A DNA stretch of 64,000 nt from Antedon bifida. Lineage: Eukaryota; Echinodermata; Crinoidea; Comatulida; Antedonidae. Both the position numbers and the translations under genes were made by a program. Location of the stretch: NCBI GenBank assembly GCA_963402885.1, contig OY727093.1:17675036-17739035 (forward strand), written 5' to 3'. Every line of letters begins with the position of its first letter. Position 1 is the first letter of the stretch. The notes below the pieces were generated by a model, which had not been told where the DNA came from, did not search any database, and worked only from the letters and a program-made list of their open reading frames with translations. Below are positions 133-54,546 of the stretch, one piece after another.

Positions 133-1037
133 CTTCACAAGCGAATTCTTTGCAAGAGACATATTCATCTTCTTCAATGGTGAAGTCTGGAGATGCACTG
201 GGTGATTTGGACAAAGAAGCACAGATGTGGTTAGCAGTGACACTGCAGATAACACCATCAAGATCCAATTCAGCAGATCCTGAGATAGTGGTAGCAGCAC
301 CAGAAGCAAGATCTTGGCTTGCATCATCAAGTGTGGCAGTTGTCTCAGAAACACGTGTTCCTGTGCCTGCATTGTTTGTGCTGAGGAATATCACCACGTT
401 CCACAAGTTGTCACCGGCTACTGATGCTCCATCATCGTTTGAGGTTACATCAAGCTTTGTATAGAAAGAAACTTGATTATCAAACCACTCATTACAAGTT
501 TAATAATATAAATTTACAAATGTATTACAAAACAAAATGTTCTGGTACTCTGATAAATGTTATAAATTTAATATATATACAATATAATGTACACTGGAGA
601 CATGACAAAAAATAGTTAGAAGCAGAATAAAGCAGAAGACACTCTTTCGAATGGTGGTTATACGCCGGCTTAGATGAAGTAGGTTAACATTATATTTGGA
701 TTTTTTTTTTAATTTCAACAAATTAGTTTGAAAGCTTAAGAAGTGAATTTAGTAAAGCACAATTCATATAGGGACAAATCAGCGAAGGAAACGTCACCAG
801 CAGAAAATGTAAAAAAAAAAGTATAAACAAACAGTGTTGTGATTAGCGCCTTGAGCACTTTTAGTGGATATGTGCGCTATATAAATTGTTATATTATTAT
901 ATTATTATTATTAATCTATTTATTTATTTTAAAAAAAAGAATGTTCTAACTTACAGCAAAATCAAATGGAAGTGAGCTTGCATCTTCCAGGATTGTGAAG
1001 TCACCAACATTTCTAAGTTCTGTACTCACAGAAACCC
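133..1037 (-). other. Module 28 (residues 3805-3939), two exons, last seen
   Basis: Exons 955-1037 and 133-454, phase-0 intron well before the Trp. Motifs are GDNLWNVVIF, NAGTGTR, ICSVTANHIC and CKEFACEG. It ends in phase 1 with a GTATGT donor, so at least one more exon lies beyond the window. Bases 1-132 are intron. Confidence 0.85.
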
Positions 1038-4000
1038 CTGTCGAAAAAAAAATATAAAAAGCACATTTTAATATAACAAATTTTAAGATATCAACAGATG
1101 GTAATCACTGTTGTTATTGATTAAGTCATCAAACATTTTATGTAAAAACAATCATGTTGTGTTTACTATCATTATTTGACACAACTGGTTCAAAATGACA
1201 TTCACAACATTTTGCCATTTATCCACAAACAGAATCATTTCGGGACCCTGCCATATACAATGATTAGACTACAGATATCTTTTGAAATACATTCTCTAAA
1301 AAATATTCTAAAATTATAATTATAATATTTTGTGTGGACTCTAACAGTTATAGGTTATTAAGTGAGTGCTTACTTAGTCGTCAGGCCAATGTTCACACAA
1401 TGAACTGTAAGATCTGACAAGCAATGAAGCATAAATGAGGTAAAATTACTGTGCAATATGAATAGCTGCTACGCAACAAAAACCTACCAACGCAACTAAC
1501 TGCAGAACAAGCAGCTAAATCACTTGTGTCTTCAATTGTGAAGTCCGTTTCTGGGTTATCACCCTTTGACACAACCAAGCAAAGGTACTGAGCATCTTCA
1601 CAAAGAACACCGGTTAAGTCTAACATTCCATCAATGTTGTCCAATCCAGTTGTCACACCGGAAATAACTTCAGAATTTCCAGTAAACGGCACGACCAGAG
1701 ACGAGGAAGGTAAATAGGCTCCACTTCCATCACTCTCACTGTTTGGAAAGAAGGTTAGTTTCCAAAGATTGTCACCACTAACAGTTCCACTATCAGATGC
1801 AATATCTAAATTGACAGAGAATGTAAGGGCATTGGCTTCCGCACTAACCAATGGTGATCCAACAAGATTAAAAGTTGATTCCTCAATTTCAATGCCTGAA
1901 ATAAAAATAAAATAAATCATAACAGTTTGTGTAAGTTTAAAAAGGCAGTTTTCAATACTAATTGCACATGGTCAGGGATTACAATAGTAAATTAATCACT
2001 GTTCTATCAGATGTGTTCTATCACAGGGGCCAATTAACCCCTACATCTCAAATGATGAATTAGGTCCTTTAAAGTGCATACAAACAAACTTTGTACACTG
2101 GACCTACAGTGTATCCTTATCCGAGAGCACAACCAAAACTAGGAACGAGTCTGCCTCGAACACAAGCCGATACTGTTGGCTCTTTATGTACGGTAAAGAA
2201 GCTTTTGCCTTAACCGCTCAGCCATTTAACCCACTCAGTACATGACATTGAAGCAAGTTGTAGTAAAATAAAAATCTCCAATTGTGATGTTGAATTAAAT
2301 TAATTTTACCTTGACAACTAGCAACGGGAGTGCATCCAACTTGTGCTGTTGCTCTGTCTGGCATTGGAGACATTGTAAAATCTATGGAAGGAGAATCTCC
2401 TCTACGGAAGTCAACACAAATGTAAAGAGCATCATCACAAGTGATTCCATCCATTGGTAAAGATGCTGTAAGACCAGTTATCTCAAGAGCACTGCCAGCA
2501 GTAAGATCAGCATTGGCCTGTGCTGATGTCAGTACAAGTGGAGTCTCACGGGAATCAATTTTTCCATCTTCACCATCAGTACTACTGAAAAACATGGTCA
2601 TTTTCCAGAGATCACTTCCAAAAATGCTGGCACCATCTGAGTTTGATTGGACAGCAATATCAAGAACAACATCTTCAGAATTTTCGCCTTCAACCAAATT
2701 ACCACCACTACTGATAGTCGCTGAGGTGGATGTAGTTTCAACATCTAAAAAAAATATTCATATAATTTAATACACGGTTCTCAAAAATAGTGTGTTCATA
2801 AATGTATGTTGCAAATTTGTACACACATACATAAATATATATAACTGTCATTAGCATTTGTAACTTCTGGTTATTTCACATCACTATGGTTGCCAAATAA
2901 ATATTGTTATCCTAGATTTATAAATAACTTCAAATATGTACATAATTCTTATCTTGGATTTTTATTTGGACAGTGGTCTAGTATAACCAATTTTTTAATT
3001 TTTTTAATGGAGAGAATATTTCTCACCATCCAACTAATTATATTATTTGTATACTATATAAATTAACATCATAAAAATTCTACAGTATATATAAGACACA
3101 CTCAAAGCATTCATTGCACAATATATGCCATAGATTACATTTTAAACAATAGCAATTTTAAAATTAACAGTTGCTATTTAACTTACTTCTACAAGTAATC
3201 TCTGAACATCCAATAGTCTGTCCAATTAAGACAACTCGTGGTTGGGCTGTGGTGGCTTGACGGGCTTCCACACATATGTAAGCTGCCTGGACACAAGTTG
3301 TCTCTACATCTACTGACACAGCTACAGGATCAAAGACCAATGGTGTACCAGCAGTCAAACGTTGTGTCTCAAGTGTGCTACTGATGGCACCATTTGCTTC
3401 GTTAAAACGATCAGCACTTGGGTCGGTTGTATCCTGATCGCTTGTAAAGACAGTGATAAGCCACAGGTTTGTCACTGACTCAAGACTGTTATCTTCACTA
3501 TCAAGAGTTACGGACAGTGTTATAGTGTTACCAACAGAATTTTCAATAAGTGAACTTGAAGTTGTTACAGATGTATCGGTAATAGTAATAGCTGTTAAAA
3601 AAAATATAACAAAATTGGCTTTAGAAAGTACTATGTATTTATGAAACTATCATCTCCAAAATGTGGTGTCTCTAAATCATACAATGATTCTTTTTAAAAC
3701 AAGGCCAACAGCCATAAGTCGCGTGCTCTCAGAAAAAAAATGAACTTTCAAAAAGTAATGTACTTTAAAACTTTTCTGTACATCAAAACAGTTCAAAAAG
3801 TACAGAAAAGCGATAAAACGCATAGTGATACCGGACCGACAGACAGACCGACCGACCGACATAGTGAACTATAGAGTCGCGTCCATGCGACTAAAAATAC
3901 TTGACACCACCACCCACATGATTCCTTGACACAGTTTTGCTTGATGCATTCTAATATAATAATATGGTCATGGTTTGAAAACTATGTTTTGTGTTATTTT

Positions 4001-7000
4001 AATTTAATTAAAAATCATTCTTTCAATATATCTACATTATTTAATACCATAAGAGCAACCTACCCAAGCATTCTAAAGGCTGGCAACCAATCAGTTCACC
4101 ATCCAGTGTAAAGTCTTTTGGTTGAGGAGAATTTCCTTTTCCCAATTCAACACATAAATACATGAGGTTAGAACAGTACTCATTTTCCAATGAAACAGTT
4201 GTCTACAAAACATGAAGCATAATAAAGATTTGATATAACATTAGATTCAAGATCTAAACTTTTGATCTTCAGTTTGTTTTCCACCTAGCCTTCAGTTTGT
4301 AAGATCTTTGAATTTCACAGCTAGTCGGGATTATAAATTTAACTTTAAAGGTATCTTTAAATTACATACACTATCACTAACCTGTAGATTGAGTAGAGCA
4401 AGTTGATCATTGTTGATATCGTTGTCTTCTTGTGACCCTAATGTCACCAGGTTCTCTATATATCTTGTTCCTGTTCCATCACTTTCACGAGTTGCAAAGA
4501 GTGTCAACTGCCAGAGACCATCACCAGCAATGGTAGCACCAGTTGGATCTATGCTGAAGGCAGCACTTATGTCAAAAGTATGTGCAGAGTCACCCTCTGA
4601 GATGTCAGCTCCTGTGTTGATGGTCAGTGCGGCCTGCGTTACTTCCACCCCTAAAAAAAAATTTTTCCTCTTTTCTATTCTCATTTATGTACTTAAATAC
4701 CCTATTTTTATAGCGTCCTTTTTATAAATCAACATGCTCAAAGGAGCTTCATAATGAATGAGTTCTACATGGACTTAGATATTACAGTTTTTAACTGCAT
4801 GCTTCTCCCCTAAGGTTCACGTCTAAAGACAATGAAAGCCATCTCAATCTCTATCAACAAGAACAAATAAAAACTTCAGTGTACCTTTACACATGACTTC
4901 CACACACGTAGTAAGAACGCTTGCATCAGGGAATGGTTGCAATGTGAAAAGCCGGGTTGGATTGCTGCTTTTTGATAAGGTTAAACAGATGTACGGAATC
5001 TATAAATTAAAAATGAGAGAGGAAAGTTCAATCCTGACCTAGGTACAGGGATTTAACATTTCATTTGTTGAGTATAATTCTTTTAATAACTTTTAAAAAT
5101 TCTAAACAAATTTGCCTCTTTCTTCTTCTTATATTTCTGATATTTATATTGATTTTTAATTTTATGTAATTAAGTTCTTCTGGGTCCCCAGACATTTCAT
5201 GTTATGGTGACTCTGTTGCTTTTAGGGTCCTAGGACATGATGTCGAATAAATAAATGAAATGAAAATGAAAATTTTGCTTGGAAAAATTGTGTTGTGAAA
5301 ATTCGACATTCTCAACCATATTTTCCTTTTGGAAATACACATGGTGTCTGCAAACAAAATTGTGATATGTTGGTCGAATAAAAAAATAAAACAAACAAAG
5401 TAAATACAAAAATAAAATAATTTTACAAACCTGATCACACTCAATTGATGAAATGTCAAACGTTACAGTCTTTGGGGTAAGCAAGTTATAATTATGTGTA
5501 TTGATATTAGACGTGACATCTGGAATAATGTGTTCAATTCCATTGTTGTCTCCCGAACCATCTTGCTCCGTATTTGCAAAAAAACGATAATCCCAAAGTC
5601 TAAGACCGGATCCAAGTAAGGCACTGTCATCAGAAACCAATACATATGTTGTTGTCTGGAACTGATAGTTACTGTCATGTTCTACTGGATCTGAACTTAC
5701 ACCTTCTGCTGTTAATTCAACAATAATAACTCCTGTGAAAATATGACAATAAAGGGTTAGTATGAACATGAAACAAAAACACTAAAATTACAAACTCCCT
5801 TAAGGTCCGTTTATACTAGGACAATACTGAATGATTTGTTCTACAGAAAACAAAAATTTTAACAAAATTAAATGCGATCTTTGATGAAAATAATATTTTA
5901 TGACTTCATGATTAGTAAGAACAATAACATTGATACAATATAACAGTTTGATTGTTCTTACAGATCATGTGTGACGTGTAAAAATATTATATTCATCAAG
6001 GATAGTATAAATGGTTATTCTATAGTTATGATAAAAACTGTTAATTTCTTTTCTGTATACTGTATGTAAAATGTATACTTATCAGCATAGTAGGACTCTT
6101 AATCATAAATTCTGTTGTTACAGATATCCATGTAAATGACAGATGGTATTATATTATTCACATAGATGTGTTATAATACATTTTAATAAATTAATTTTAA
6201 AAAAAGAATAAATACCATTGCATGATAGAGGAGTACATGCAGTATCCGTATTATTTTCTGCTGTAAAAGAAAAGTCTCCTTGATTGCGGCTAATATTAGC
6301 ACAAATGAATGGCACAATCTCACAACTTATGTTGTCAAGATTTATCGAGAATGTAAGGTCTGAGAGGGTAGTGGTTTGGTCTGGAACAACACCTAAAAAC
6401 AAAACCATTACATGTTAGTTGTTACAGTGGCCTTGGAAATCTATGAGTACAAATGCAAATAGTCCAAAGGACACCCCTGGCAACAGTCAAAGAGTTGTAG
6501 AGGGCCACATTAATGTCTCTCATGCATGACATTGTCCTCATATCCCTTTTACCAACCAGATCAACCTTGAAAGATTGATTGGCGCTAGACTGGCATTCAG
6601 CATATCTGTGTGGCCGCAAGTACAACCATCTGTGACATGTACGTCTCGCTGGCCTACTGCAAAGTAGTGGATCTTATCTCAATCTAGCTCTCGGGGTAGG
6701 ACCATACCTATGAGTGTTCAGGCAAATAATCCTGACCAAACGTCTTCTCAAGCATCTAATGCCTGTAGGAAATCCTTGGCCCAGACGAAATAGACTATTT
6801 CCAAGTTTTTTTAACAATAACACTTTCTTTCTTTTTACACTTGTGTTAAACAGCGCATAGAGACTATTTGTATTTTGCGCTATACAAATTTAAACCATCA
6901 AACCATTTATTTTGTTTATAAATCATTGCTTTTACCTTCTTGTGACTGTGCTGATGTAAGAGTAATTTCTGTAGAAAATGCATGTGACAGATCCTTTCCG

Positions 7001-28000: not shown

Positions 28001-31000
28001 TTATCATTGCTTGCTGCTGACAGTTCAAAATTTGGGCTAGCAGAACTAGATTTCGACAGAACTGCACACAAATAGTCTATACTGCCACTTGCACAGTAAA
28101 GATTACTAAAGTCCATAGTAGCACTTAAACCTGTTAGACTTAAAGTATCTCCAATAGTTGTTATATCCATTCCAGCATTGGCGGCTATAGAAATAAAATC
28201 CAAAGTTAACTAGGCGAAAGAAATTTGAAAAGTTGTTCACAACATCAAATTTTCTACTGAATATGGGTTGGCTGTGTTCCCCATTAAAACTACTACTACT
28301 GTAAATTGTCATTTGATGTAGTTCATTGCTTAATAAGTAATATACGTTTATACATATGTCAATGTTTTAATCAATATATCTGTTTCACTGAAATGTAATA
28401 CAGATAAAGGCAATCTAACAACACATTAGATCAAAGGACTGTTCCTATCTTGGAAAACGAGCTCATCGTCCTGTTGTTAGATTGCCTTGGACCTACTAAC
28501 TCACTTGATAGAATCACTTGTTGCGCACTTTGCTGAGTACCACTTCCATCAGCATTAGCACTGGCATAAATGTTGACCTGCCATAAGTTGTTACCAGTAA
28601 CACCAGCATTACTGGTAGGATAGGTAACATCAAATGCAACGGTTGTTGATCGATCTTCCAAAAAACCTGCACTGATAGTCAAACTTGCATCAGCATTGAT
28701 TACAATTCCTGCACAAGAAAATGATTATGCAATAACCAAAGAAATAAGTAAATGCCTTTTCTCAACAGTTTTGTAGTATTTATTCATTTCACAATGATCT
28801 TGTTTGACAAAAAGCCTGAAAATACCAACACAATCTCAAAATAAAACTAAATGTTTGGTCTTTTGTACAGAAAGATTACATTGCACATCAGATCCCTCAG
28901 ATCAAGCATGCTCAATTTGTAGCTAAATGTACTATACTTACCAGTACATTGTATTTGAGCACAGCCAATGTTAGCTGTGTCTGGTGTAAAGCCAAGAGTA
29001 AAAGCTGGGGATGGACTTGTGCCTTGTTGAACTTCAATGCACACATAATCAAATTCCGAACAACTTAAAGAAGTAAGGTCAAAGTCTACATGTATCTGTA
29101 AAATTGAAAAAAATATATCCATTAGAGCCATTCCAATGATCATTGCTCATAAATGCTGTCCAGGTGACTTTTCAAAGTACATGCTTCTCCCCTAAGGTTC
29201 TCATTATTTCATTGCTGCCATTTCAGGGCCTCTCCTGTCTGTGTGTGTGTGTGTGAACTAGTAAACCGGGGTAAAGTAAGTAAACCCCTACTGGTCTCCA
29301 AAGATATAGTAAAAGGTTATTTTACACAAACAATTTTGTGTATACTGGACCTTCCGTTTTATAGGGTAGTCCTTAAAAGTGAATGTGGACCATTGCAGGT
29401 ATTATCATGGATTACAGTTTCATGTCTTATTGCTCACAATAACTTAAACATACCAACCAGAAATGAGTTATATAAAGAATAAAATAATATTTTATTATGT
29501 CTCAGAGGGAGAATCCAATAAACAGGAATGAGAGGTAGAAATATATCAAAATATATGTTAATGGTTTTTCATTACCAATGGCCAGACTGAATTTCCATTA
29601 TTGTCCAGACCGTAATCTGCTGACGTCAACATGTCAACATCATGGTCTTGAATCCTTGTTCCAGTTCCATCAACTTCTGAATTCAAAAAGCCTCTTGCTT
29701 TCCACAGACCAGTTCCTTAAATTTATTATAAATATAATTATATAAAATCAATCAATATTTTTATAGTTTTTAATTTGATCATTGCACTACTTGTGTATGT
29801 TACTTACTTATATTATCATAGCTTCTTTTTTTTATGGTTTTTTATTAATCTAATTTGTATATACAGTACATCATCACTACTATGTTCAGAACTAACAAAG
29901 TGTTTTTCAAATACAATGCTATAGGTATTGGCCCTTGTTCGTTTTAGGGAAAAATTTCCTCTTAATAGGAGTGTGTCTCCTGAACAGGGTTGTAACAAAA
30001 GAGGTTTTCTACTGTAGGTTTGCAGTCTAGATGATATTTTGAATGATCCAACTATGGAGGTATAAAAATAACTAATTGTATACCTCCAAAATCCAACTTT
30101 ACCTTGTATACTGGCAAAGGATGTGTCAGAAGACAACGTCACAGTCAAATCTACATCATTATTGTTAGTTCCTTGAACCAAAGGTGAGTTTGCAGTTTGA
30201 GCAGGTAAAACATTTGTGATGACCACACCTAAAGAAATATAAACATTTCAAGTGATGGTACAAATACCTAATCAATTATTATTAGGATATATAGATATAT
30301 ATACAACAGCAGTTTATTGTATATAGTTTATACTTGATAGCACAAGAGGGATGAATAAAGATACAGTATATTCTGTTGTATTATTTGTTACTAGGGAACT
30401 ACACTAAACTAAGCTGTGATTGGCTCTGTAGCCTACAGTACTGTAAGCATCATTTACTGTACCTCATGTCAACATCGTTGTGGGGGAATATAACTGGTTC
30501 AAAAAAATATTAGTTACTAAGCAAATCATGTTTTTTAAGTCAAGTTAGATGAGTAAAGTATTCATTGTAAAAATCGTATGTATTTTTAAGTAGGCCTATT
30601 GTGTAGACCATGGTGTTCCCTATCAGGACAACTACCACCTTTTCATCTCATTTGGGACAAGCACTGTTTTTCTAAAATAAAGTGATTCAACTGGTATACA
30701 ATAAAACCTTGAGTTTTCAAGGTGCTTTTTGTTATGGTGAGTTGCGTGGCCAAGCTCACCACCAGAACAATATAGTCGAGGAGTGCCTTGAAGTCTGTGT
30801 GTTATATTATTGTTATGGTGAGTTGAGTGGTCGAGCTCACCACCAGAACAATGGTCGAGGAGTGCCTTGAAGTCTGTGTGTGATATTATTGTTATGGTGG
30901 TGAGCTTGGCCACTCAGGCCTAAAGGTACCTCCAGATATCTCTGATAGGAAGAATAATAGCTATATACGTAGTAGGTAATAGTAGCAGCAAGGTACTGCA

Positions 31001-34000
31001 ATTTTCTAGGAAGCAGGTGGTCGACGGATGTCCCGGAAGGTAATTATCAGAATAATTTTATATGATTTAAAGGATTTGTACAACTCTCTGGTTTATATGT
31101 GGATATTATATTTTATTTTATGTCTTAGGCAATGTGGCCAAGGATTATTAATAGTAAATTAATCACTGTCCTATCAGATAGGTGGTAATAATCCCACTAA
31201 TACAGGGGCTATTTTAACCACCTACTGTATACTCTTCTCGAATAATGAACTGGGTTCTTTAAAGTGCACAGAGGAACTGTCTACACTGGACCTACGGTTT
31301 GTAGTCCTCATCCGAGAATACTTGTTTCACCTTCAGAACTAGGAGCGAGTCGGCCTCGAACCCTTGCTTATATTGTTGGCTCTTTAGGTATGGTAAATGG
31401 CGCCCCTGTCTCCACTCGGCCATTGACTGAGTGTCTAGAAAACTCAGATTTAGAAAAGTCAGATCTCAGATATATCTGACTTTTCTAGATCTAGAAAACT
31501 CAGATATATCTGAGATCCGAGTTTTCTAGACACCCGCCATTAACTCGCTTATGAAAATGAACTATACCGTAAACTAAAATCAAACATAAATCTTAACAAA
31601 CCTTGACATTCTATAGCAGTGCACACAGTTGTGTCATATCCAGTGTCTGGAGTTAATGTAAAACTGCCTTGTGACGTCAATGTAGCGCAAAACATTGACA
31701 ATTCTGAACAAATCCTATTTTCAAGATTCAAATTAGCTGTTCCTTGAAGTGTAAATGTTTGTCCTGGTGTCACACCAACATTGGCATTAACTAGGGTGGC
31801 AGTAGCTTCCGTTCCTGACACCAGAACATTGGCAGAATCTCTTATGAAGAATTCCAAAGCCCATAGGTTTGAGCCAGTTAAGGAATCACTTCCAGCCGTT
31901 GTACCAATAATAAACGACGATGTTATAGCATGAGAAGTTGTGTGTTCAATTAACGGGTCACCAGAAATTAGATTAGGAATAATATTTGTAATAATAACTG
32001 GAAAAAAAAGATAATGAATTAATAACTTCGTTTTACAATTGTTAGGTACTCTCCAAACACCCCACTATAATTTATTTAATAGGTAGCACTTATACTGTAT
32101 GTGAAATAATATTGTATAATGATAAACATTTTGACATATTGACTACAGTATATTAAGCCTAAAGAAAATAATTGTTTTTCATGCCTTACCATCAGCATTA
32201 GCTGTAAAAATCTGCAAGAAAAGTAGATAACATAAATAAATTATAACTATATCCTACACAGTTCATATGCCTACCCACAGTGCAACATACTTTCAACAAT
32301 ACTCTTTTTAATTGTTTTATTCTTTTATTTAACAACAGGATTACACAATCAGGAAAAAGAAAAACCTGTTTTATATTGTGGTCCTGTCTTAAATACAAAT
32401 ACAAAAACAAATCGAAACAACAAAGTTTTAGTTTTGCGAAAAGAAAGATCGATATCTAGCTTAAATGAAGTCCAATTTGAGTAAACTTTTGATATATGTT
32501 TTTTGAGACTTTATTTTATTGTAATAGGCCTACATCAAAAAACCTTTTCTTGCAATTTTTCTTGCAGTTTGACTCGACTAAAGTAATTGTTGGAGAATTC
32601 AGAACTTGTCAATTCAATTAATTATTAGGTCTATCATGATTAATTTTGTGATTTTTAAAAGAGTAAGAAAACATAACTGAAGAGGCTTCCTAAATTACGT
32701 TTTACTTTCATTTACTAAAGCCTAATCCTTGACAAAATGTAGGGAGTACGATAGGCACCAAGTAACACAAGGAATGCAATATATAAACTATGTACTGTAG
32801 AACCCGGTATTGGTACCTATTGTTATACAAATCAAGTTAGTTTATGCTCCATAAATTATGAAATACAAGAAAAAGTTTTAACAATAACGTCCACAGGCAT
32901 AACAGTGTATTGTAAAAGAAAAACCAAACATCAGGTCAAGTCAACCATGATAGAAACTACAGAGGTATACGACGGGAGTGTCACAAAGAGTTGATAATTG
33001 TCACCGTAATCTTATAGGCTTAAACATCATGCTAAAAAATACTTTCAGTATTTTACAAATATGCTTATCATACATTGTTTTCTAGAAAATGTAGGCCTAC
33101 ATAAAACTTCATTTCAACCCTGTTTACAATTAATGTGCAGTCCTTTTCTTAGAGAAACTCTCAACTCATGAATAAAATTATATAAAAGTGTTATTTGTTA
33201 ACAAACTTTTTGTAAATTAATTACAAAGTGTCATATTAAAGATATTTTGGTGCACTCCCACACAAGTTCAAATCACACTGCTCCGTTCCCCTCTCCTTCG
33301 GTGCACTGCCACACAAGTTCAAATCACACTGTTCCGTTCCCCTCTCCTTCGGTGCACTGCCACACAAGTTCAAATCACACTGTTCCGTTCCCCTCTCCTT
33401 CGGTGCACTGTCACACAAGTTCAAATCACACTGCTCCGTTCCCCTCTCCTTCGGTGCACTGCCACACAAGTTCAAATCACACTGTTCCGTTCCCCTCTCC
33501 TTCGGTGCACTGCCACACAAGTTCAAATCACACTGTTCCGTTCCCCTCTCCTTCGGTGCACTGCCACACAAGTTCAAATCACACTGTTCCGTTCCCCTCT
33601 CCTTCGGTGCACTGCCACACAAGTTCAAATCACACTGCTCCGTTCCCCTCTCCTTCGGTGCACTGCCACACAAGTTCAAATCACACTGTTCCGTTCCCCT
33701 CTCCTTCGGTGCACTGCCACACAAGTTCAAATAACACTGTTCCGTTCCCCTCTCCTTCGGTGCACTGCCACACAAGTTCAAATCACACTGTTCCGTTCCC
33801 CTCTCCTTCGGTGCACTGCCACACAAGTTTAAATCACACTGTTCCGTTCCCCTCTCCTTCGGTGCACTGCCCACAAGTTCAAATCACACTGTTCCGTTCC
33901 CCTCTCCTTCGGTGCACTGCCACACAAGTTCAAATCACACTGCTCCGTTCCCCTCTCCTTCGGTGCACTGTCACACAAGTTCAAATCACACTGTTCCGTT

Positions 34001-37000
34001 CCCCTCTCCTTCGGTGCACTGCCACACAAGTTCAATCACACTGTTCCGTTCCCCTCTCCTTCGGTGCACTGCCACACAAGTTCAAATCACACTGTTCCGT
34101 TCCCCTCTCCTTCAGTGCACTGTCACACAAGTTCAAATCACACTGTTCCGTTCCCCTCTCCTTCGGTGCACTGCCACACAAGTTCAAATCACACTGTTCC
34201 GTTCCCCTCTCCTTCGGTGCACTGTCACACAAGTTCAAATCACACTGTTCCGTTCCCCTCTCCTTCGGTGCACTGCCACACAAGTTCAATCACACTGTTC
34301 CGTTCCCCTCTCCTTCGGTGCACTGCCACACAAGTTCAAATCACACTGCTCCGTTCCCCTCTCCTTCGGTGCACTGCCACACAAGTTGAAATCACACTGT
34401 TCCGTTCCCCTCTCCTTCGGTGCACTGCCACACAAGTTCAAATCACACTGTTCCGTTCCCCTCTCCTTCGGTGCACTGCCACACAAGTTCCAATCACACT
34501 GTTCCGTTCCCCTCTCCTTCGGTGCACTGCCACACAAGTTCAAATCACACTGTTCCGTTCCCCTCTCCTTCGGTGCACTGCCACACAAGTTCAAATCACA
34601 CTGTTCCGTTCCCCTCTCCTTCGGTGCACTGCCACACAAGTTCAATCACACTGTTCCGTTCCCCTCTCCTTCAGTGCACTGTCACACAAGTTCAAATCAC
34701 ACTGTTCCGTTCCCCTCTCCTTCGGTGCACTGTCACACAAGTTCAAATCACACTGTTCCGTTCCCCTCTCCTTCGGTGCACTGCCACACAAGTTCAAATC
34801 ACACTGTTCCGTTCCCCTCTCCTTCGGTGCACTGCCACACAAGTTCAAATCACACTGTTCCGTTCCCCTCTCCTTCGGTGCACTGCCACACAAGTTCAAA
34901 TAACACTGTTCCGTTCCCCTCTCCTTCGGTGCACTGCCACACAAGTTCAAATCACACTGCTCCGTTCCCCTCTCCTTCGGTGCACTGCCACACAAGTTCA
35001 ATCACACTGTTCCGTTCCCCTCTCCTTCGGTGCACTGCCACACAAGTTGAAATCACACTGTTCCGTTCCCCTCTCCTTCGGTGCACTGCCACACAAGTTC
35101 AAATCACACTGTTCCGTTCCCCTCTCTCCGTCGGTGCACTGTCACACAACAAGTTTCATAACTGTATCATCATAACATTTTAATTTTAACCATGGAAGAA
35201 TTATTTTTTGCTACGGCCCTGTAAACAAGACTACCCGAAATTAACCTTCTACATAGAGATATAATAATAATATAATATCTCTATTTATCGCATGTCCTTA
35301 CGACTCCTATGAATGCAAATATCATTCGGTACATCGTATATAATTCACATCCTTCTTAACCATGGAAACCGCAGTGGGTAATAATTGGTAACAATTATTT
35401 ATATCGATTGTCATTATACCATCATGGATGCTAGTTTCAATTTATAAGTGACTGTCTCAAATAACGCACACACCGTTTATTGTTCAGAAACAGTGAAATA
35501 ATATCAAAGCACGTCGATCTGCCTAAGCCTAATATGCTGTATGCGTCTACCTAGGACTACAGTTTGGAGACACGATAATATTGTCTTATGGAGTAGTGGA
35601 TAATTTTCATTAAACCCCTCGCTCACCCTGTGAAATATCTGGATCCGCCATCATGCACGATATCTCATCAGTCGATAAAGTGAATATAATAAATGTAGGG
35701 GCTATCCAATCCTGTTTTACACTGTTATGTCATAGGCTTACAGTACATAATGTAGTAGCCTATTACAAGGATTGTTTAATAACATTAATAACAGAAAGCA
35801 ACTCGAATTGATAATAAATGTATTATGTACTATGATAGCTATAATGTGTAATATTTAATGAAGACGTATTACAATATTAACTAAGCGTGATGGTTTAATG
35901 GTTTTAAATTTAGCCTATATAGCGCAAAATACAAATATTCTCTATATGCGCTGTTTAACACAAGTGTAAAAAGAAAGATAGTGTTATTGTTAAAACAAGG
36001 GAAAGCCTAAAATAAACCGAACAAATTGAAAGTCCGAAGATGAATATCATGTGATTTTGTAGGTTATAATATATTCTCTACCAGAATAAAATACTTCAAG
36101 ATCATGAAATGTGCTATGGTGTGTTGATGTTTCAATCTTTTTCTTACGAATTTTTTTTTCTGTTTAAATTGAATACGGTGAACCGAATTAAGGTTAACCC
36201 ATCACTAAAAATGACATGACGTAATGACAAGAGTCCCTGTGTTTCTCCCCCATAGAGCAACGTTGCTCTATGATGTTACACCGTGTTCATGCATCTATCG
36301 AATATCACTGTCTCGATCATCGTCCTTCATGTTTAGATGGTTTTAATATCGATCATGCTAACTAACAATAATTGTGACAATTACAGTATTTTTTACGAGC
36401 ATAAGAAAGAAAATAAAAGCCAAGTCGCGGTAGATAAATATGCATACTTCTGCAGTATCAATACTATATAATAATACAGTAAACAGTTTTCTTGATAGTA
36501 CAAACACAAAATGGCAATGCATGTTAGACCTTGTATCAACTTTTCCAAAGGATCTTCACAAGCCTAGCGTCAGTGAGCCCAACATGGGTAGGTCTATTTG
36601 AAATAAATTATGTACAATGTACACAATTATATTTGTATTATTACTGTATGTTAGAAGCAATGACAATGATGCGATTTTACAATGGTCTTGATCTTTTAGT
36701 GATAGTGGTCGAAGTTGTTGAGAACGGGAGAGCATTCCAGTCTCTAACTGTGTTAGGGAAGAAAGAGCTCTGGAATCGGTTGGTCTTAGCCACAGGAACT
36801 TTAATTGTAAGTGGATTGTGGTTCCTATGGTACAAACGCATTTGATACGCTTACAAAATTCAACGCGTTTACTGACTATACGAACTTTTAGCACGCGAAA
36901 TTCAAAGACAATAAAACGTTTGAATCGAATACCAATTTAAAACGTTTAAATGTAGTAATTATTAAAAACATATTATATACGTACCGTAAATAATACCGCA

Positions 37001-37032
37001 AATAGCGGAAGGAACATTTTCGTGTTACCCAT
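133..37032 (-). CDS. Giant secreted modular protein, 28 tandem Cys4/Trp modules, 3' end outside window
   Basis: I do not recognise this gene. It starts at ATG 37,032 and is open at the left edge (last exon seen 133-454, ending in phase 1). Exons 5' to 3': 36985-37032, 32190-32211, 31602-31997, 30103-30228, 29576-29715, 28942-29095, 28497-28708, 27963-28209, 27225-27629, 26501-26905, 25418-25659, 24886-25066, 23576-23986, 23093-23376, 22594-22735, 21897-22130, 21132-21311, 20169-20585, 19343-19662, 18810-18924, 17701-18123, 16969-17168, 16336-16558, 15357-15746, 14711-14842, 13998-14294, 12932-13372, 12421-12584, 11788-12034, 10881-11561, 10208-10387, 9695-9846, 8444-8738, 7540-7962, 6936-7169, 6216-6392, 5431-5732, 4885-4999, 4382-4650, 4064-4202, 3187-3591, 2310-2744, 1488-1895, 955-1037, 133-454. 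All have AG/GT borders and the frame holds through 3,939 codons. A signal peptide (1-23) precedes 28 modules. No transmembrane segment or known enzyme motif is visible. Secretion and a beta-sandwich fold are inferences. Confidence 0.9.
841..915 (+). repeat. SINE/LINE-like 3' tail with ATT repeats
   Basis: GCGCTATATAAATTG followed by an (ATT)n run resembles the 3' ends of short retroelements, and its GCGCTATA core is shared with the 6,808 and 35,891 repeats. The body is not recognisable. Confidence 0.45.
1488..1895 (-). other. Module 27 (residues 3669-3804), single exon
   Basis: One 408-nt exon with GDNLWKLTFF, ESDGSGAY, LCEDAQYLC and CSAVSCVG. Confidence 0.85.
1975..2232 (-). repeat. tRNA-derived SINE, copy 1
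   Basis: On the minus strand there is a box A-like TGGCTGAGCGG (2214-2224), followed about 55 bp later by box B-like TGTTCGAGGCAG (2152-2163). This spacing matches a class II tRNA (Leu/Ser type) promoter. The downstream part shares blocks with 31,130-31,430, including the CTTTAAAG(T/A)GCA and ATTAATCACTG segments. It lies in the intron between modules 26 and 27. Confidence 0.75.
2310..2744 (-). other. Module 26 (residues 3524-3668), single exon
   Basis: One 435-nt exon with GSDLWKMTMF, TDGEDGK and TCDDALYIC. The closing pair has one extra residue (CTPVASCQG). Confidence 0.85.
3187..3591 (-). other. Module 25 (residues 3389-3523), single exon
   Basis: One 405-nt exon with VTNLWLITVF, TCVQAAYIC and CSEITCR. 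The border codon becomes Asn (A|AT) instead of the usual Gly. Confidence 0.85.
3831..3861. repeat. GACC/GACA simple repeat
   Basis: A (GACC)n run with GACA interruptions, inside a longer repeat-like stretch (about 3,700-3,895) in the intron between modules 24 and 25. Confidence 0.7.
4064..4650 (-). other. Module 24 (residues 3253-3388), two exons
   Basis: Exons 4382-4650 and 4064-4202, phase-0 intron after LLNLQ. Motifs are GDGLWQLTLF, ESDGTGTRYIE, YCSNLMYLC and CQPLECLG. Confidence 0.85.
4885..5732 (-). other. Module 23 (residues 3114-3252), two exons
   Basis: Exons 5431-5732 and 4885-4999. The phase-0 intron is between the first two Cys (ECDQ|IPYIC), as in module 11. Motifs are RLWDYRFF, EQDGSGDN and CVEVMCKG. 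Confidence 0.85.
5130..5275 (+). repeat. LINE-like 3' tail in module 23/24 region intron
   Basis: AATAAATAAATGAAATGAAA after a GC-richer stretch (GGGTCCCCAGACATTTCATG) resembles a truncated LINE 3' end. No coding part remains. Confidence 0.35.
6216..7169 (-). other. Module 22 (residues 2977-3113), two exons
   Basis: Exons 6936-7169 and 6216-6392, joined in phase 1 (SQEG|VVPDQ). The second exon alone looks like a truncated module, but the two together give a normal 137-residue unit. Motifs are GSGLWSVTVF, SCEIVPFIC and CTPLSCNG. Confidence 0.82.
6808..6907 (+). repeat. Dispersed repeat tail, copy 2
   Basis: Homologous in opposite orientation to 35891-36000. The preceding non-coding stretch (about 6,420-6,807) is richer in GC than the flanking introns and may be the body of the same element, but I see no second copy of that part. 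The element ends about 30 bp before the donor of module 22 exon 6936-7169. Confidence 0.65.
7540..7962 (-). other. Module 21 (residues 2836-2976), single exon
   Basis: One 423-nt exon with GDGNWGLQVF, ASDGTGDSF, VCEGLTTYLC and CEEVTCVG. Confidence 0.85.
8444..9846 (-). other. Module 20 (residues 2687-2835), two exons
   Basis: Exons 9695-9846 and 8444-8738. The phase-0 intron is four residues after the Trp (ADLWNLQ|VFTSS). The Cys pattern is TCGNELYVC and CKTVDCQG, with a slightly long segment before the third Cys. Confidence 0.85.
10208..11129 (-). other. Module 19 (residues 2544-2686), part of a shared exon plus one exon
   Basis: It uses 10881-11129 of the shared exon and then 10208-10387, joined in phase 1 after GVTPG. 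Motifs are GTSLWTVEAF, ISDGSGDRFAS, SCSNFNHMC and CVEIECIG. Confidence 0.85.
11130..11561 (-). other. Module 18 (residues 2400-2543), fused in-exon to module 19
   Basis: First 432 nt of exon 10881-11561. Motifs are GSDQWNIKVF, ASDGSGDVYSE, TCRDIKYLC and CEEIDCEG. It is the only module whose 3' border carries no intron: the Gly codon at 11,128-11,130 that is split by a phase-1 intron at other borders is here intact. Confidence 0.88.
11788..12584 (-). other. Module 17 (residues 2263-2399), two exons
   Basis: Exons 12421-12584 and 11788-12034, phase-0 intron after ADLKDR, inside the segment that normally carries DGSG. Motifs are GDNLWALTAD, ICEDQIQLC and CVDIECEG. Confidence 0.85.
12932..13372 (-). 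other. Module 16 (residues 2116-2262), single exon
   Basis: One 441-nt exon with GTDLWAFSVF and CSIVPCRG. The first Cys pair is spaced wider than usual (CVEDPNLAYRLC). Confidence 0.85.
13998..14842 (-). other. Module 15 (residues 1973-2115), two exons
   Basis: Exons 14711-14842 and 13998-14294, phase-1 intron a few residues before the Trp (VQNIWNLTLF). It has an extra Cys near the start (QPICEAD) on top of the usual four (TCDEMQYLC, CIAVTCKG). A MITE sits in its internal intron. Confidence 0.85.
14465..14641. mobile_element. MITE with about 45-bp inverted repeats inside module 15 intron
   Basis: GGGAGCTTTCGGAAACAG at the left and CTGTTTCGAAAGCTCCC at the right, extending inward through CAGTGTGCRACYCGCAA on both sides. 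A TA dinucleotide flanks each end, consistent with a 2-bp TA target duplication (Tc1/mariner-type MITE). It has higher GC than the host intron. Confidence 0.8.
15357..15746 (-). other. Module 14 (residues 1843-1972), single exon, rearranged cysteine
   Basis: One 390-nt exon, the shortest module. The Trp lies in GTDWDVEL. Cys three is lost (GSTLIPCEG) and a new Cys sits in the DGSG loop (DDDCTGST), as in module 5. The pair YCNELTYLC is intact. Confidence 0.85.
16185..16319. mobile_element. MITE, about 135 bp, in the intron after module 13
   Basis: Terminal inverted repeats CTTAAGCTCTGTCTGCACTA and TAGTGTAGACAGAGTGTAAG. It has no coding capacity. The right end lies 17 bp from the donor of exon 16336-16558, very close to a splice site. 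Confidence 0.7.
16336..17168 (-). other. Module 13 (residues 1702-1842), two exons
   Basis: Exons 16969-17168 and 16336-16558, phase-0 intron after RFAEM. The loop reads SADSNGDGDRF, which resembles a calcium-binding DxNxDG loop. Motifs are GTDLWRITTY, SCSKFDYIC and CTAIQCTG. The last donor is GTTCGT, weaker than its neighbours. Confidence 0.85.
17701..18123 (-). other. Module 12 (residues 1561-1701), single exon
   Basis: One 423-nt exon with GTNIWQLRVF, MSDGMGNSQG, VCPATTYFC and CQSITCRG. Confidence 0.85.
18392..18716. mobile_element. MITE family B copy between modules 11 and 12
   Basis: Left end TTAAAGATGTTGTCCTCC, right end CAGGGGGACAATATAT. The interior blocks GTCAAAGTGAATAACTATTA and TGTGACATTAAAATGG recur at 54,640-54,690. 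Degenerate ends suggest an old copy. Confidence 0.6.
18810..19662 (-). other. Module 11 (residues 1416-1560), two exons
   Basis: Exons 19343-19662 and 18810-18924. The phase-0 intron lies between the first and second Cys (IICSS|VPYIC), the same place as in module 23. Motifs are GSNLWALTVF, EADGEGS and CVEIDCQG. The intron between the exons is short of known features. Confidence 0.85.
20169..20585 (-). other. Module 10 (residues 1277-1415), single exon
   Basis: One 417-nt exon with GTDLWEVNIF, STGSGTRTAE, ICTEVEYLC and CAQLDCNG. Confidence 0.85.
21132..22130 (-). other. Module 9 (residues 1139-1276), two exons
   Basis: Exons 21897-22130 and 21132-21311, joined in phase 1 after AWRNT. Motifs are GTDLWNATVF, MSDGSGVRYAE, ACDNLMYVC and CTLSSCTG. 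Confidence 0.85.
22594..23376 (-). other. Module 8 (residues 997-1138), two exons
   Basis: Exons 23093-23376 and 22594-22735, phase-0 intron between FTNVM and VVNWDL. Motifs are GTNLWIFTFY, ANGTGMR, LCNQAEYIC and CMPLQCRG. Confidence 0.85.
23576..23986 (-). other. Module 7 (residues 860-996), single exon
   Basis: One 411-nt exon. It has GTNLWSISSS, LCSQINYFC and CTSVTCKG. The stretch after the Trp is Ser-rich and lacks the usual VF and DGSG motifs, so this module is divergent in the loop. Confidence 0.85.
24886..25659 (-). other. Module 6 (residues 719-859), two exons
   Basis: Exons 25418-25659 and 24886-25066, with a phase-0 intron between LAANE and TIQFTN. Motifs are GSSLWEATIF, CLDDAMYIC and CQPVTCYG. 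The DGSG loop is degenerate (SDDSTFA). Confidence 0.85.
26501..26905 (-). other. Module 5 (residues 584-718), single exon, rearranged cysteine
   Basis: One 405-nt exon with GPNLWKIDIY and MCSDMEYIC. The third Cys of the pattern is replaced by Ser (SLRTDCRG), while the DGSG loop has gained a Cys (NSDCSGN). Module 14 shows the same exchange. Confidence 0.85.
27225..27629 (-). other. Module 4 (residues 449-583), single exon
   Basis: One 405-nt exon with GTGLWDAVVF, ECVDAPFIC and CFVPTCLG. The DGSG loop is replaced by ADDTTRT. All four Cys are present. Confidence 0.85.
27963..28708 (-). other. Module 3 (residues 296-448), two exons
   Basis: Exons 28497-28708 and 27963-28209. Motifs are NNLWQVNIY, NADGSGTQ, YCASGSIDYLC and CTLANCSG. 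At 153 residues it is the longest module. The internal splice (GAGTTA|GTAGGT joined to CTAG|TTAACT) keeps the frame but is the least certain junction in the gene. Confidence 0.75.
28407..28488. repeat. Perfect 16-bp inverted repeat beside module 3 exon
   Basis: AAGGCAATCTAACAAC (28407-28422) is repeated inverted at 28473-28488 with a 50-bp loop. The right arm ends 9 bp from the donor of exon 28497-28708, so a pre-mRNA stem could form next to that splice site. Confidence 0.7.
28942..30228 (-). other. Module 2 (residues 156-295), three exons
   Basis: Exons 30103-30228, 29576-29715 and 28942-29095. It is the only module cut twice: once in phase 1 just before GTGLWKARGF and once in phase 0 before the strand leading to SCSEFDYVC. 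It closes with CAQIQCTG and has a well-kept VDGTGTR loop. Confidence 0.85.
29241..29255. repeat. GT microsatellite
   Basis: Fifteen bases of alternating GT in the intron between exons 28942-29095 and 29576-29715. Confidence 0.8.
30731..30925. repeat. About 80-bp tandem duplication with internal hairpins
   Basis: Units start GTTATGGTGAGTTG at 30,731 and 30,812 and a partial third at 30,891. Each holds GGCCAAGCTCACCACC or a variant. The last piece carries the inverse GGTGGTGAGCTTGGCC, so the array ends with an inverted partial copy. It lies in the intron between modules 1 and 2. Confidence 0.75.
31130..31430 (-). repeat. tRNA-derived SINE, copy 2
   Basis: Minus-strand box A TGGCCGAGTGG (31412-31422) and box B GGGTTCGAGGCC (31352-31363). 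The body matches copy 1 in several blocks (GGTTCTTTAAAGTGCAC, CGAGTCGGCCTCGAAC, TAAATTAATCACTG). It is the best-preserved promoter of the family here, and its 5' end abuts a palindrome (31431-31533). Confidence 0.8.
31431..31533. repeat. Nested palindrome at the 5' end of a SINE
   Basis: The outer arms GTGTCTAGAAAACTC (31431-31445) and GAGTTTTCTAGACAC (31519-31533) enclose repeats of TAGAAAAGTCAGAT, ATATCTGACTTTTCTA and TCTAGAAAACTCAGATATAT. The whole 103 bp can fold into one branched stem. Confidence 0.8.
31602..31997 (-). other. Module 1 (residues 24-155), single exon
   Basis: First repeat after the signal peptide, in one 396-nt exon. It shows GSNLWALEF around the invariant Trp, the cysteine pair ICSELSMFC and the closing pair CTAIECQG. 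The DGSG-like loop is poorly kept. Both borders are phase 1. Confidence 0.85.
32190..32211 (-). other. Exon 2: 22-nt micro-exon, end of signal peptide
   Basis: This exon encodes IFTANAD plus the first base of a Gly codon. A pyrimidine-rich TTTTCTTGCAG acceptor precedes it and GTAAGG follows. It joins exon 1 (phase 0) to the first module (phase 1) and supplies the likely signal-peptidase site, so it works as a phase adaptor for the phase-1 module array. Confidence 0.75.
33247..35150. repeat. 51-bp minisatellite, about 37 copies, in intron 1 of the giant gene
   Basis: Head-to-tail copies of a 51-bp unit starting GTGCACTGCCACACAAGTTC. Copies are nearly identical. Common variants are C or T in CTG(C/T)TCCG and GC(C/T)ACACAAG, and 50-bp units with TTCAATCAC near 34,033, 34,287, 34,643 and 34,999. 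The last three variant units are about 356 bp (seven units) apart, which hints at higher-order duplication. As 51 is 3 x 17, both strands show long open frames. These shift at the 50-bp units, and the array lies in an intron, so I do not call them genes. Confidence 0.97.
35891..36000 (-). repeat. Dispersed repeat tail, copy 1
   Basis: The reverse complement matches 6808-6907 closely through AACAATAACACT, CTTTCTTTTTACACTTGTG and TTTGTATTTTGCGCTATA. It is probably the 3' part of a SINE or LINE family. The start and full length are not resolved. Confidence 0.7.
36251..36272. repeat. 22-bp perfect palindrome in intron 1
   Basis: CATAGAGCAACGTTGCTCTA plus TG reads the same on both strands. No associated element is recognised. 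Confidence 0.6.
36677..36848 (-). repeat. LINE 3'-end coding remnant in intron 1
   Basis: Read on the minus strand, this gives a run ending in a stop that contains NRFQSSFFPNTVRDWNALP. That motif is typical of the last residues of the reverse-transcriptase ORF in CR1/L2/jockey-like LINEs. Only the C-terminal tail is here, so it is a strongly 5'-truncated copy. It is unrelated to the host gene. Confidence 0.75.
36985..37032 (-). other. Exon 1: start codon and signal-peptide core of the giant gene
   Basis: The exon encodes MGNTKMFLPLFAVLFT and ends in phase 0 before a GTACGT donor. Together with the next micro-exon it gives a short polar start, a Leu/Phe/Val hydrophobic core and an A-N-A cleavage-type motif at residues 20-22, which is typical of a secretory signal peptide. 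No other ATG nearby gives such a leader. I see no TATA box in the bases just upstream, and the 5' UTR limit is unknown. Confidence 0.8.
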
Positions 37033-53234: not shown

Positions 53235-53775
53235 TTAAAGATGTATTGTCCCTTGAAACAAAAAAATTAAGGTAAAAAAAATCTAAATTTAAATTGGCCA
53301 TATCAAAGTACTGTAATATTAAAGTTATTCACTTTTTAAGTCGAAAATTCGAGCCAAAAACAACAAGTTTACGTAATTAACAGGTAAATTAATTTGATTA
53401 CATTTCGTCTGGAAAATCGTTGCTGGCGAAAGTAAACAAAGATTTCAAACCACTAATTACAACACGTCACGGTTGAGAAGGTGTTTTCACACAGATCTTG
53501 AGGAAGTTTTATGATTATGCATACAGAGTAGCCAAACAAGAGCATTGCATTATGAGATATGTTTTGATCGAAAACTTTGACTGGAAGTCAACGTTATTTT
53601 TTGAACTAAAAAACGTCTGTATTTCAGTTAAATGATTTTTTTTCCAACTAATTTTTGGTTAAAGTTAATATTACTAAATAATATATAACATAATATACTA
53701 TTATGATACTTCAAAATGACTCACTTTTTTTCGCAATCTTTTTATTTTTATTTTTTTGGAATTAGTCAAAGTAAT
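53235..53775 (-). mobile_element. MITE family A copy 1, beside AAMP exon 1
   Basis: Inverted relative to 54689-55222 and alignable along nearly its full length, starting TTAAAGATGTATTGTCCC. The far end (about 20 bp) is lost where the LINE fragment begins. Its terminus is only about 21 bp from the splice acceptor before the AAMP start codon. Confidence 0.8.
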
Positions 53776-54546
53776 TTTTTGTTAAGGGAGTTACCGCCTC
53801 CTAGCTTCTCTCTTAGTGGCACTGAACTCCAGGTTGTGAAGCATATTAAGCTATTGGGAGTTTTGATCCAAGACGACTTGAGGTGGAATTTACATGTTAA
53901 TGAAATAATTACAAAGGCTTCCCGTAGGTTATTTACACTCTGTATTTTACGTAGGGCTAATGCCCCAGTTGACGATATGAAATGTATTTATTTGAGTTAC
54001 ATTCGGCCTATATTGGAGTACGCCTGCCCTGTATGGCATGGTGCCATTACACAATTTAATACCCAACTTATTGAAAGGGTTCAAAAAAGGGCCCTAAAAA
54101 TTATTCTTGGTCTTAATTACATTTCATATGAATTAGCTTTAGAATTTTTTAATTTACCTTTGCTAAAAGTCAGGCGTGATAATCTTGTACTGACTTTTGG
54201 CAAGAAGATGTCGAATTCGGACAAGTTCAGTTATTTGCTCCACCCTATCCGTAGTATTCCTCGTGTTCTCCGAAGCAACGGCAAGGTCAAATATCAACAA
54301 TACAAACCGAGAACCAAAAGATTTAAAAATTCACCAATCCCTACAATAATTAATTTGCTAAACAATAGTTCATGAGCCAAAGAGTCAGAGTGATATTGTT
54401 GTTATTTCATTTTATTACATCCTTTTTATTGTTATGTAAGTATTGTATAGTAATTTTGTAAATGCAACGTTTTTAGCCTTGCGGCTACCTGTTGTAAGTT
54501 TTATACCAGAATAAATAAAAATAAATAAATAAATAAATAAATAATA
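53776..54546 (+). mobile_element. 5'-truncated LINE, reverse-transcriptase C-terminal part with AAAT tail
   Basis: A continuous frame to the stop at 54373-54375 carries LLGVLIQDDLRWNLHV, YIRPILEYACPVWHG and LIERVQKRALKIILGL. These are the palm-end and thumb motifs of CR1/L2/jockey-type LINE reverse transcriptases. The catalytic palm and the endonuclease are missing upstream. After the stop comes a short 3' UTR and an (AAAT)n tail at 54,513-54,546. The open frame suggests a fairly recent insertion. The clade is not settled from this piece. Confidence 0.9.

What the first reader, a model, noticed from the sequence alone, without database searches (positions are those of the whole stretch)
133..37032. 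Candidate undescribed family: secreted protein of at least 28 tandem Trp/Cys4 modules
Forty-five exons read through in one frame (11,818 nt). A signal peptide is followed by 28 modules of 130-153 residues with the pattern LW..xxF, S/D-DGSG, about 40 residues, C-x(5-10)-YxC, about 25-30 residues, C-x(4)-C-x-G. Trp is present in all 28 modules and the full Cys set in 26. I know no named domain with this signature. Size and repetition suggest an extracellular structural, adhesive or immune-type protein. That role is inference only.
Basis: partly seen in the sequence, partly recalled or inferred. Interest (0 to 1): 0.88.

Follow-up and report, generated by a model that had tools for sequence, protein, structure and literature searches.

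The report
Giant feather-star receptor with 31 modules
The 28 repeated modules are real and belong to an undescribed extracellular domain, but they are not from a secreted protein: they are most of the outer part of a roughly 5,450-residue cell-surface receptor phosphatase of feather stars whose inner enzyme lacks a key catalytic residue.

Summary
In detail: the window's minus strand encodes a signal peptide, 45 exons and 28 Trp/Cys4 modules (26 of 28 with the full Cys set). The gene runs past the window's left edge. Read to its end it has 31 modules, six FN3 domains, a furin-motif juxtamembrane domain, one transmembrane helix and one complete protein-tyrosine-phosphatase (PTP) domain. So "secreted" is wrong: it is a receptor-type PTP. 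The host is a feather star close to Antedon mediterranea. Public gene models of A. mediterranea (97% identical) and Anneissia japonica (70%), both "uncharacterized protein", have the same 31 modules; with Anneissia they pair one-to-one in order. Two acorn worms have the same architecture with six modules; three sea urchin proteins carry the module beside EGF, CUB, LDLa or avidin domains. No convincing Pfam, NCBIfam or PDB sequence match was found; AlphaFold2 gives a confident beta-sandwich (pLDDT 94.9), nearest by Foldseek to integrin alpha headpieces. The catalytic Asp of the WPD loop is Ala in crinoids and Ile in acorn worms, while HCSAGVGRT is intact: probably a natural pseudophosphatase or substrate trap under a very long adhesion-type ectodomain. 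Ligand, expression and paralogue number are unknown; the own-genome census did not complete.

The parts
36985..37032 (-). Exon 1: start codon and most of the signal peptide (MGNTKMFLPLFAVLFT)
   Evidence: aligns without a gap of 3 or more to the public A. mediterranea model
32190..32211 (-). Exon 2 (22 nt): IFTANAD, end of the signal peptide region
31602..31997 (-). Module 1 (one exon)
28942..30228 (-). Module 2 (exons 30228-30103, 29715-29576, 29095-28942)
27963..28708 (-). Module 3 (exons 28708-28505, 28184-27963)
27225..27629 (-). Module 4 (one exon)
26501..26905 (-). Module 5 (one exon); third Cys lost, new Cys 12 residues after the Trp
24886..25659 (-). Module 6 (two exons)
23576..23986 (-). 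Module 7 (one exon)
22594..23376 (-). Module 8 (two exons)
21132..22130 (-). Module 9 (two exons)
20169..20585 (-). Module 10 (one exon)
18810..19662 (-). Module 11 (two exons)
17701..18123 (-). Module 12 (one exon)
16336..17168 (-). Module 13 (two exons)
15357..15746 (-). Module 14 (one exon); third Cys lost, new Cys 12 residues after the Trp
13998..14842 (-). Module 15 (two exons); one extra Cys
12932..13372 (-). Module 16 (one exon)
11788..12584 (-). Module 17 (two exons)
11128..11561 (-). Module 18 (first part of the fused exon 11561-10881)
10208..11127 (-). Module 19 (rest of the fused exon, plus exon 10387-10208); the only module without an intron at its start
8444..9846 (-). Module 20 (two exons)
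7540..7962 (-). Module 21 (one exon); the module whose structure was predicted
6216..7169 (-). Module 22 (two exons)
4885..5732 (-). Module 23 (two exons)
4064..4650 (-). Module 24 (two exons)
3187..3591 (-). Module 25 (one exon)
2310..2744 (-). Module 26 (one exon)
1488..1895 (-). Module 27 (one exon)
133..1037 (-). Module 28 (exons 1037-955, 454-133). The gene goes on left of the window: modules 29-31, six FN3 domains, juxtamembrane domain, transmembrane helix and PTP domain, ending about 20.67 kb before window base 1 (host contig C1)

Best explanation
The modules are a previously undescribed ~140-residue extracellular beta-sandwich domain of ambulacrarian animals. Here they form the outer ~4,350 residues of a giant single-pass receptor-type protein tyrosine phosphatase. 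Shown from sequence: signal peptide, 31 tandem modules, six FN3 domains plus a long furin-motif juxtamembrane domain, one transmembrane helix, one cytoplasmic PTP domain. Inferred: the protein is cut by furin in its juxtamembrane domain and the halves stay associated (recalled for some receptor PTPs); the modules form a long (roughly 0.1-0.2 micrometre) adhesive or spacing rod that binds matrix or a neighbouring cell. Inside, the PTP domain keeps the phosphate-binding Cys and Arg but has lost the general acid Asp (WPD to WPA), so it should bind phosphotyrosine proteins and turn them over very slowly: a scaffold or natural substrate trap that shields phosphotyrosines or competes with active receptor phosphatases at adhesion sites, rather than a fast phosphatase.
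For: Gene continuity: one frame, consistent splice phases, 69 exons. The public A. mediterranea model (5,462 aa, on a contig longer than any here, so another assembly) agrees at 5,264 of 5,442 aligned residues; the only gaps of 3 or more residues are a 12-residue over-extension of mine and the last exon. C-terminal Pfam: Y_phosphatase 2.5e-80, fn3 3.3e-52 (6 stretches), PTP_tm 5.3e-7. Among single-domain PDB chains the PTP domain scores best with PTPRB (324.6 bits) and then other R3 receptors; the two two-domain rows shown domain by domain give at most 231.6 per domain. One TM helix in own model and 4 of 4 public receptors; furin-type RX[KR]R in the juxtamembrane domain of 4 of 4 public receptors. 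WPA in crinoids and WPI in acorn worms with intact HCSAGVGRT. [quoted passage not shown] Modules 31/31 one-to-one between Antedon and Anneissia, 6/6 between two acorn worms. Sea urchin relatives put the module beside EGF, CUB, LDLa and avidin domains.
Against: No expression, ligand, localisation or enzyme data. Loss of the WPD Asp does not always abolish activity, and PTPRQ with WPE dephosphorylates phosphoinositides (PMC7320164 passages). PTPRU shows that inactivity can also come with loss of phosphotyrosine binding, in which case trapping would fail. Some active-site loops vary further: the phosphotyrosine loop reads SNRY in Anneissia and the Q-loop MVLTQ in Ptychodera. Adhesion is by analogy only. 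Rod length is a rough estimate. The Ptychodera model starts without a recognisable signal peptide, so that gene model may be incomplete.
Confidence: 0.6

Rival explanations
1. An active enzyme after all: the receptor dephosphorylates tyrosines or phosphoinositides, using another acid or a different substrate, as PTPRQ does with WPE.
For: P-loop, KNRY loop and Q-loop are intact in Antedon; PTPRQ with WPE has phosphoinositide activity. The divergent deuterostome R3 group with altered WPD loops lies near PTPRQ in Chicote et al. 2017 (passages).
Against: The residue is Ala or Ile, neither of which can donate a proton; D181A in PTP1B costs five orders of magnitude in kcat.
Confidence: 0.2
2. The ectodomain mainly works as a released or alternatively spliced matrix protein; the PTP part is secondary.
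For: Furin-type motif in 4 of 4 juxtamembrane domains; sea urchin relatives with the same module have no PTP domain, and two of the three show no strong TM helix besides the signal peptide.
Against: The crinoid and acorn-worm public models include TM and PTP; the distance from last module to TM is conserved at 714-719 residues in 4 of 4 public receptors. One sea urchin relative, P0045, also has a TM helix near its end.
Confidence: 0.2
3. A recognition receptor of immune or allorecognition type with diversified modules.
For: Large repeated ectodomain with low identity between modules (mean 26%).
Against: 31 of 31 modules are positional orthologues at 55-81% identity between two crinoid families: no turnover, no shuffling. 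Copy number in the genome could not be counted.
Confidence: 0.05
4. Two adjacent genes wrongly joined: a secreted module protein and an FN3/PTP receptor.
For: No transcript was examined here.
Against: The intron between module 31 and the first FN3 exon is only 328 nt and in phase 1; module+FN3+PTP in one protein also in A. mediterranea, Anneissia, Ptychodera and Saccoglossus.
Confidence: 0.03

Closest known systems
R3-type receptor PTPs (PTPRB/VE-PTP, PTPRJ, PTPRO, PTPRH, PTPRQ; fly PTP10D)
   Same: FN3 repeats, long juxtamembrane FN3 domain with PTP_tm match and introns in phases 1, 1, 2, one TM, one PTP domain closest to PTPRB
   Different: 31 non-FN3 modules in front; WPA instead of WPD; no Tyr in the tail after the PTP domain, so no YxN motif
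Divergent deuterostome R3 sequences of Chicote et al. 2017 (Acorn worm WPI, Sea urchin_3 WVD, Sea urchin_4 WTD)
   Same: Altered WPD loop; the acorn-worm WPI equals that of P0046 (Saccoglossus LOC100372485) found here; that the two are the same record is likely but unchecked because the supplement was not read
   Different: The sections and passages of that paper read here describe no module of this kind
PTPRU (R2B receptor pseudophosphatase)
   Same: Receptor whose catalytic motifs are altered and which is proposed to compete as a scaffold (PMC7320164, passages)
   Different: Other ectodomain (recalled), two PTP domains; PTPRU also lost the pTyr loop (GSRQ), which Antedon keeps as KNRY and Anneissia has as SNRY
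Sea urchin EGF/avidin proteins (fibropellin-like; name recalled)
   Same: S. purpuratus LOC575916 has 7 of these modules among EGF repeats and an avidin domain
   Different: No PTP domain in the three sea urchin proteins found; a different architecture
Integrin alpha thigh-type Ig-like domain (part of the headpiece; domain name recalled)
   Same: Best Foldseek hits of the predicted module are integrin alpha headpieces, E 7.6e-5, TMq 0.44

Membership tests
Receptor-type protein tyrosine phosphatase (RPTP) | Signal peptide, extracellular region, one transmembrane helix | tested here: met
   Signal sequence by eye; hydropathy maximum IVAGTVGVFTILLIILLICVC, the next best place is the signal peptide itself
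Receptor-type protein tyrosine phosphatase (RPTP) | Cytoplasmic PTP domain with C-X5-R | tested here: met
   PF00102 2.5e-80; HCSAGVGRT
Catalytically active PTP | Asp in the WPD loop | tested here: not met
   WPA in own gene, P0002, P0003; WPI in P0004, P0046
R3 subtype RPTP | Single PTP domain, nearest to R3 members | tested here: met
   One stretch; best score among single-domain PDB chains PTPRB 324.6 bits, then other R3; no tree was built
R3 subtype RPTP | Extracellular part made of FN3 repeats only | tested here: not met
   31 other modules precede the FN3 block
R3 subtype RPTP | Long juxtamembrane FN3 domain with introns in phases 1 and 2 | tested here: met
   PTP_tm (PF18861) 5.3e-7; introns in phases 1, 1, 2, 2 around exons 59-61; published pattern from PMC5336234 section 14; the end phase differs from the published 1
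R3 subtype RPTP | YxN phosphorylation motif after the PTP domain | tested here: not met
   No Tyr after the PTP domain in the crinoid sequences; PTPRQ and the divergent group also lack it (passages)
A known Pfam domain for the module | A significant match | tested here: not met
   15 of 15 modules scanned: best E 0.029, four different families each in one module; 5 typed modules: best E 0.15, 13.1 bits against a cut-off of 25
FN3 domain | Profile similarity of the module to the gene's own FN3 domains | tested here: not met
   hhalign with five of the gene's FN3 domains: probability 0.1%, 5 columns
Integrin alpha thigh / Ig-like fold | Same fold over the whole domain | tested here: inconclusive

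The most novel reading that the evidence does not exclude
Ambulacrarians invented a new extracellular domain and used it to build giant adhesion receptors whose phosphatase is a naturally fixed substrate trap: the same Asp-to-Ala change that biochemists engineer. In crinoids the array grew to 31 modules and then froze, as if its length were functional, a molecular ruler between cells or between cell and matrix.
Probability: 0.3. Interest if true: 0.8.

Novelty: new variant of a known kind. Interest (0 to 1): 0.62.

Why it matters
An extracellular domain present in 6 to 31 copies per protein in crinoids, sea urchins and acorn worms has no entry in the Pfam copy searched and no solved relative found by sequence. 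Its crinoid and acorn-worm forms sit on receptors that kept the phosphate-binding loop but lost the general acid, giving a natural test of what a trapping receptor does in an animal, and a very long, strictly conserved module array whose length appears to be under selection.

Tried and rejected
Tunicate as host: tried from assembly size, rejected because the mitochondrial contig has AAA at a conserved Asn site, nad6 opposite to cob, nad1/nad2 opposite to cox1 (genes named by eye) and 73.1% AT, and because the near-identical protein is from Antedon.

Module as a divergent FN3: rejected. Module in Pfam, NCBIfam or PDB by sequence: nothing convincing. Integrin kinship: kept only as a lead. The VIA list holds many unrelated sandwich proteins (Spo0M, TRAP subunit, GH2 enzymes, transglutaminase); an absent family there proves nothing.

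Two adjacent genes: rejected on the short phase-1 joining intron and on four other species' models.

Gene-model errors found and corrected: exon 4 over-extended by 90 nt, exon 52 by 36 nt and the last exon missed. The first script failed on N letters. The final length of about 5,457 aa is arithmetic from these corrections; the scripted model with exon 4 mended is 5,454 aa.

Not obtained: census of module genes and other receptor PTPs in the host genome; a tree of PTP domains with R3 references; any transcript; the supplement of Chicote et al.; Byrum et al. 2006 (not held). The protein searches were capped by shared words and by length, so absence from other animals is not shown.

Against my reading: the non-crinoid HMM also gave 1 plus-strand piece and 1 hit in 100 shuffles at i-E 1e-3; one acorn-worm module has Phe for the Trp (P0004 module 2); Anneissia has SNRY for KNRY and Ptychodera lacks the first Q-loop Gln.

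Full report
WHAT IS THERE. On the minus strand of the window, from 37032 to 133, lie 45 coding exons with one consistent reading frame, 11,785 nt with exon 4 corrected to end at 30103. Trp is present in 28 of 28 modules; the full Cys set in 26 of 28.

WHERE IT GOES. The 50 kb to the left of the window continue the gene: modules 29-31, then FN3 domains, a transmembrane helix and a PTP domain, stop about 20.67 kb before window base 1. The intron between module 31 and the first FN3 exon is 328 nt, phase 1. The scripted model has 69 exons and, with exon 4 corrected, 5,454 aa. Comparison with the public A. mediterranea protein shows a 12-residue over-extension at exon 52 and a missed last exon, so about 5,457 aa. 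Pfam on the last 1,101 residues: Y_phosphatase 2.5e-80, fn3 3.3e-52 with 6 stretches, PTP_tm 5.3e-7.

HOST. Eleven large contigs of 19-37 Mb, 315.6 Mb in all. The mitochondrial contig is 15,844 bp, 73.1% AT, with nad1 and nad2 opposite to cox1 (genes named by eye), and reads AAA at the Asn of the cob HANGAS motif (motif recalled). A published comatulid crinoid has 15,887 bp and 72.73% AT (start of abstract and passages of PMC8820819). The best protein match is Antedon mediterranea, 5,264 of 5,442 aligned residues identical. So: a feather star of the genus Antedon or very near it; the species is not settled (A. bifida would be a guess).

RELATIVES. A search with 3,203 residues of the protein (43 rows, only the 2,249 candidates sharing most words were scored) returned P0002 (A. 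mediterranea, 5,462 aa, 97%), P0003 (Anneissia japonica LOC117114839, 5,459 aa, 70%) and P0004 (Ptychodera flava, 2,375 aa, 31%). Of the other 40 rows 35 bear a PTPRF name; all 40 cover only 7-10% of the query. A search with the six modules of P0004 (5 rows including itself, 7,985 candidates scored) added P0046 (Saccoglossus kowalevskii LOC100372485), P0045 (Diadema setosum), P0047 (Lytechinus pictus) and P0048 (S. purpuratus LOC575916). The first search with an alignment of 15 single modules gave one 165-residue piece, P0001. Module counts: 31 in own gene, P0002 and P0003, 6 and 6 in acorn worms, 13, 7, 7 in sea urchins. The sea urchin proteins carry EGF (all three), CUB (P0045, P0047), LDLa (P0047) and avidin (P0048) domains and no PTP domain; P0045 has a TM helix near its end, P0047 and P0048 show none of comparable strength apart from the signal-peptide region.

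A FROZEN ARRAY. Each of the 31 Antedon modules has the module of the same number as its best match in Anneissia, in both directions, at 55-81% identity; within the gene, modules average 26%. Acorn-worm modules pair 6 of 6 in order. The number and order of modules were therefore fixed before Antedonidae and Comatulidae (lineages) separated. The stretch from the last module to the TM helix is 714-719 residues in the four public receptors. 30 of 31 modules begin at a phase-1 intron, the class expected for spreading by exon shuffling.

THE ENZYME PART. Among single-domain PDB chains the PTP domain scores best with PTPRB and other R3 receptors (the rows at the top are two-domain chains whose scores sum two domains). 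HCSAGVGRT is intact in own gene and four public receptors; the KNRY loop and Q-loop are intact in Antedon, but the first reads SNRY in Anneissia and the second MVLTQ in Ptychodera. WPD reads WPA in own gene, P0002 and P0003 and WPI in both acorn worms. In PTP1B the same Asp-to-Ala change costs five orders of magnitude in kcat (passages of PMC10267100). Chicote et al. 2017 (abstract, sections 4, 9, 14, 20 and passages) report altered WPD loops in divergent deuterostome R3 receptors, among them an acorn worm with WPI; what I read of it mentions no extra module. The four public receptors have a furin-type motif in the juxtamembrane domain.

MECHANISM. Shown: architecture, conservation, loss of the general acid. 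Inferred: surface display of a very long adhesive or spacing rod (taking about 4 nm per module, a recalled figure, 0.1-0.2 micrometre); furin processing; a phosphotyrosine-binding scaffold or trap inside, comparable in logic to PTPRU (passages of PMC7320164). Not shown: ligand, expression, localisation, activity.

NOVELTY. Receptor PTPs are known; this one is a variant with an undescribed domain and an altered active site. The relatives found here are named only 'uncharacterized protein' (or, in one source for S. purpuratus, EGF-like domain-containing). A search of the paper library for four of the locus names found 0 papers; searches for receptor phosphatases or fibropellins with echinoderm or crinoid terms listed no paper titled on this domain. 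That covers open-licence papers only.

LIMITS. No RNA data were available. The acorn-worm and sea urchin counts rest on public gene models; the Ptychodera model lacks a recognisable signal peptide. Absence of the module outside the species named was not tested: the protein searches were capped.

Noticed in passing
window 33249-35149: A 51-bp satellite-like tandem array, about 37 copies at 97% matches, inside intron 1 of this gene; it opens long artificial reading frames in several frames.
   Followed up: no
window ~45980-50760, minus strand: Pieces of a WD40 protein (pieces 45982-46281 and 50513-50758 match PF00400); looks like AAMP by eye only.
   Followed up: partly
window ~60940-63660, plus strand: Exons that read by eye like a neutral sphingomyelinase; the three pieces tested gave no Pfam match alone.
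   Followed up: partly
window 53707-54375, plus strand; and about 27.6-31.6 kb left of the window: Reading frames that look like parts of LINE-type reverse transcriptase elements by eye; the window piece had no Pfam match alone.
   Followed up: no
P0046 (Saccoglossus), residues 1-900; P0004 (Ptychodera), residues 1-430: The acorn-worm receptors have a long Thr/Ser/Glu-rich repeated stalk in front of the six modules, P0046 with a short Cys-rich start; the crinoid proteins begin with modules right after the signal peptide.
   Followed up: no
P0048 (S. purpuratus LOC575916): Seven modules between EGF repeats in a protein that ends in an avidin domain, so the module also lives in a fibropellin-like setting.
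   Followed up: partly
P0045 (Diadema setosum), about residue 3834: A strong TM helix near the end of a 13-module EGF/CUB protein without a PTP domain: possibly a second kind of membrane protein built on the module.
   Followed up: no
module 15, window 13998-14842: A fifth Cys near residue 15-19 in all three crinoid proteins: possibly a bond to another chain or module.
   Followed up: no
about 5.9-6.1 kb left of the window: A run of 200 N in the intron between modules 29 and 30.
   Followed up: no
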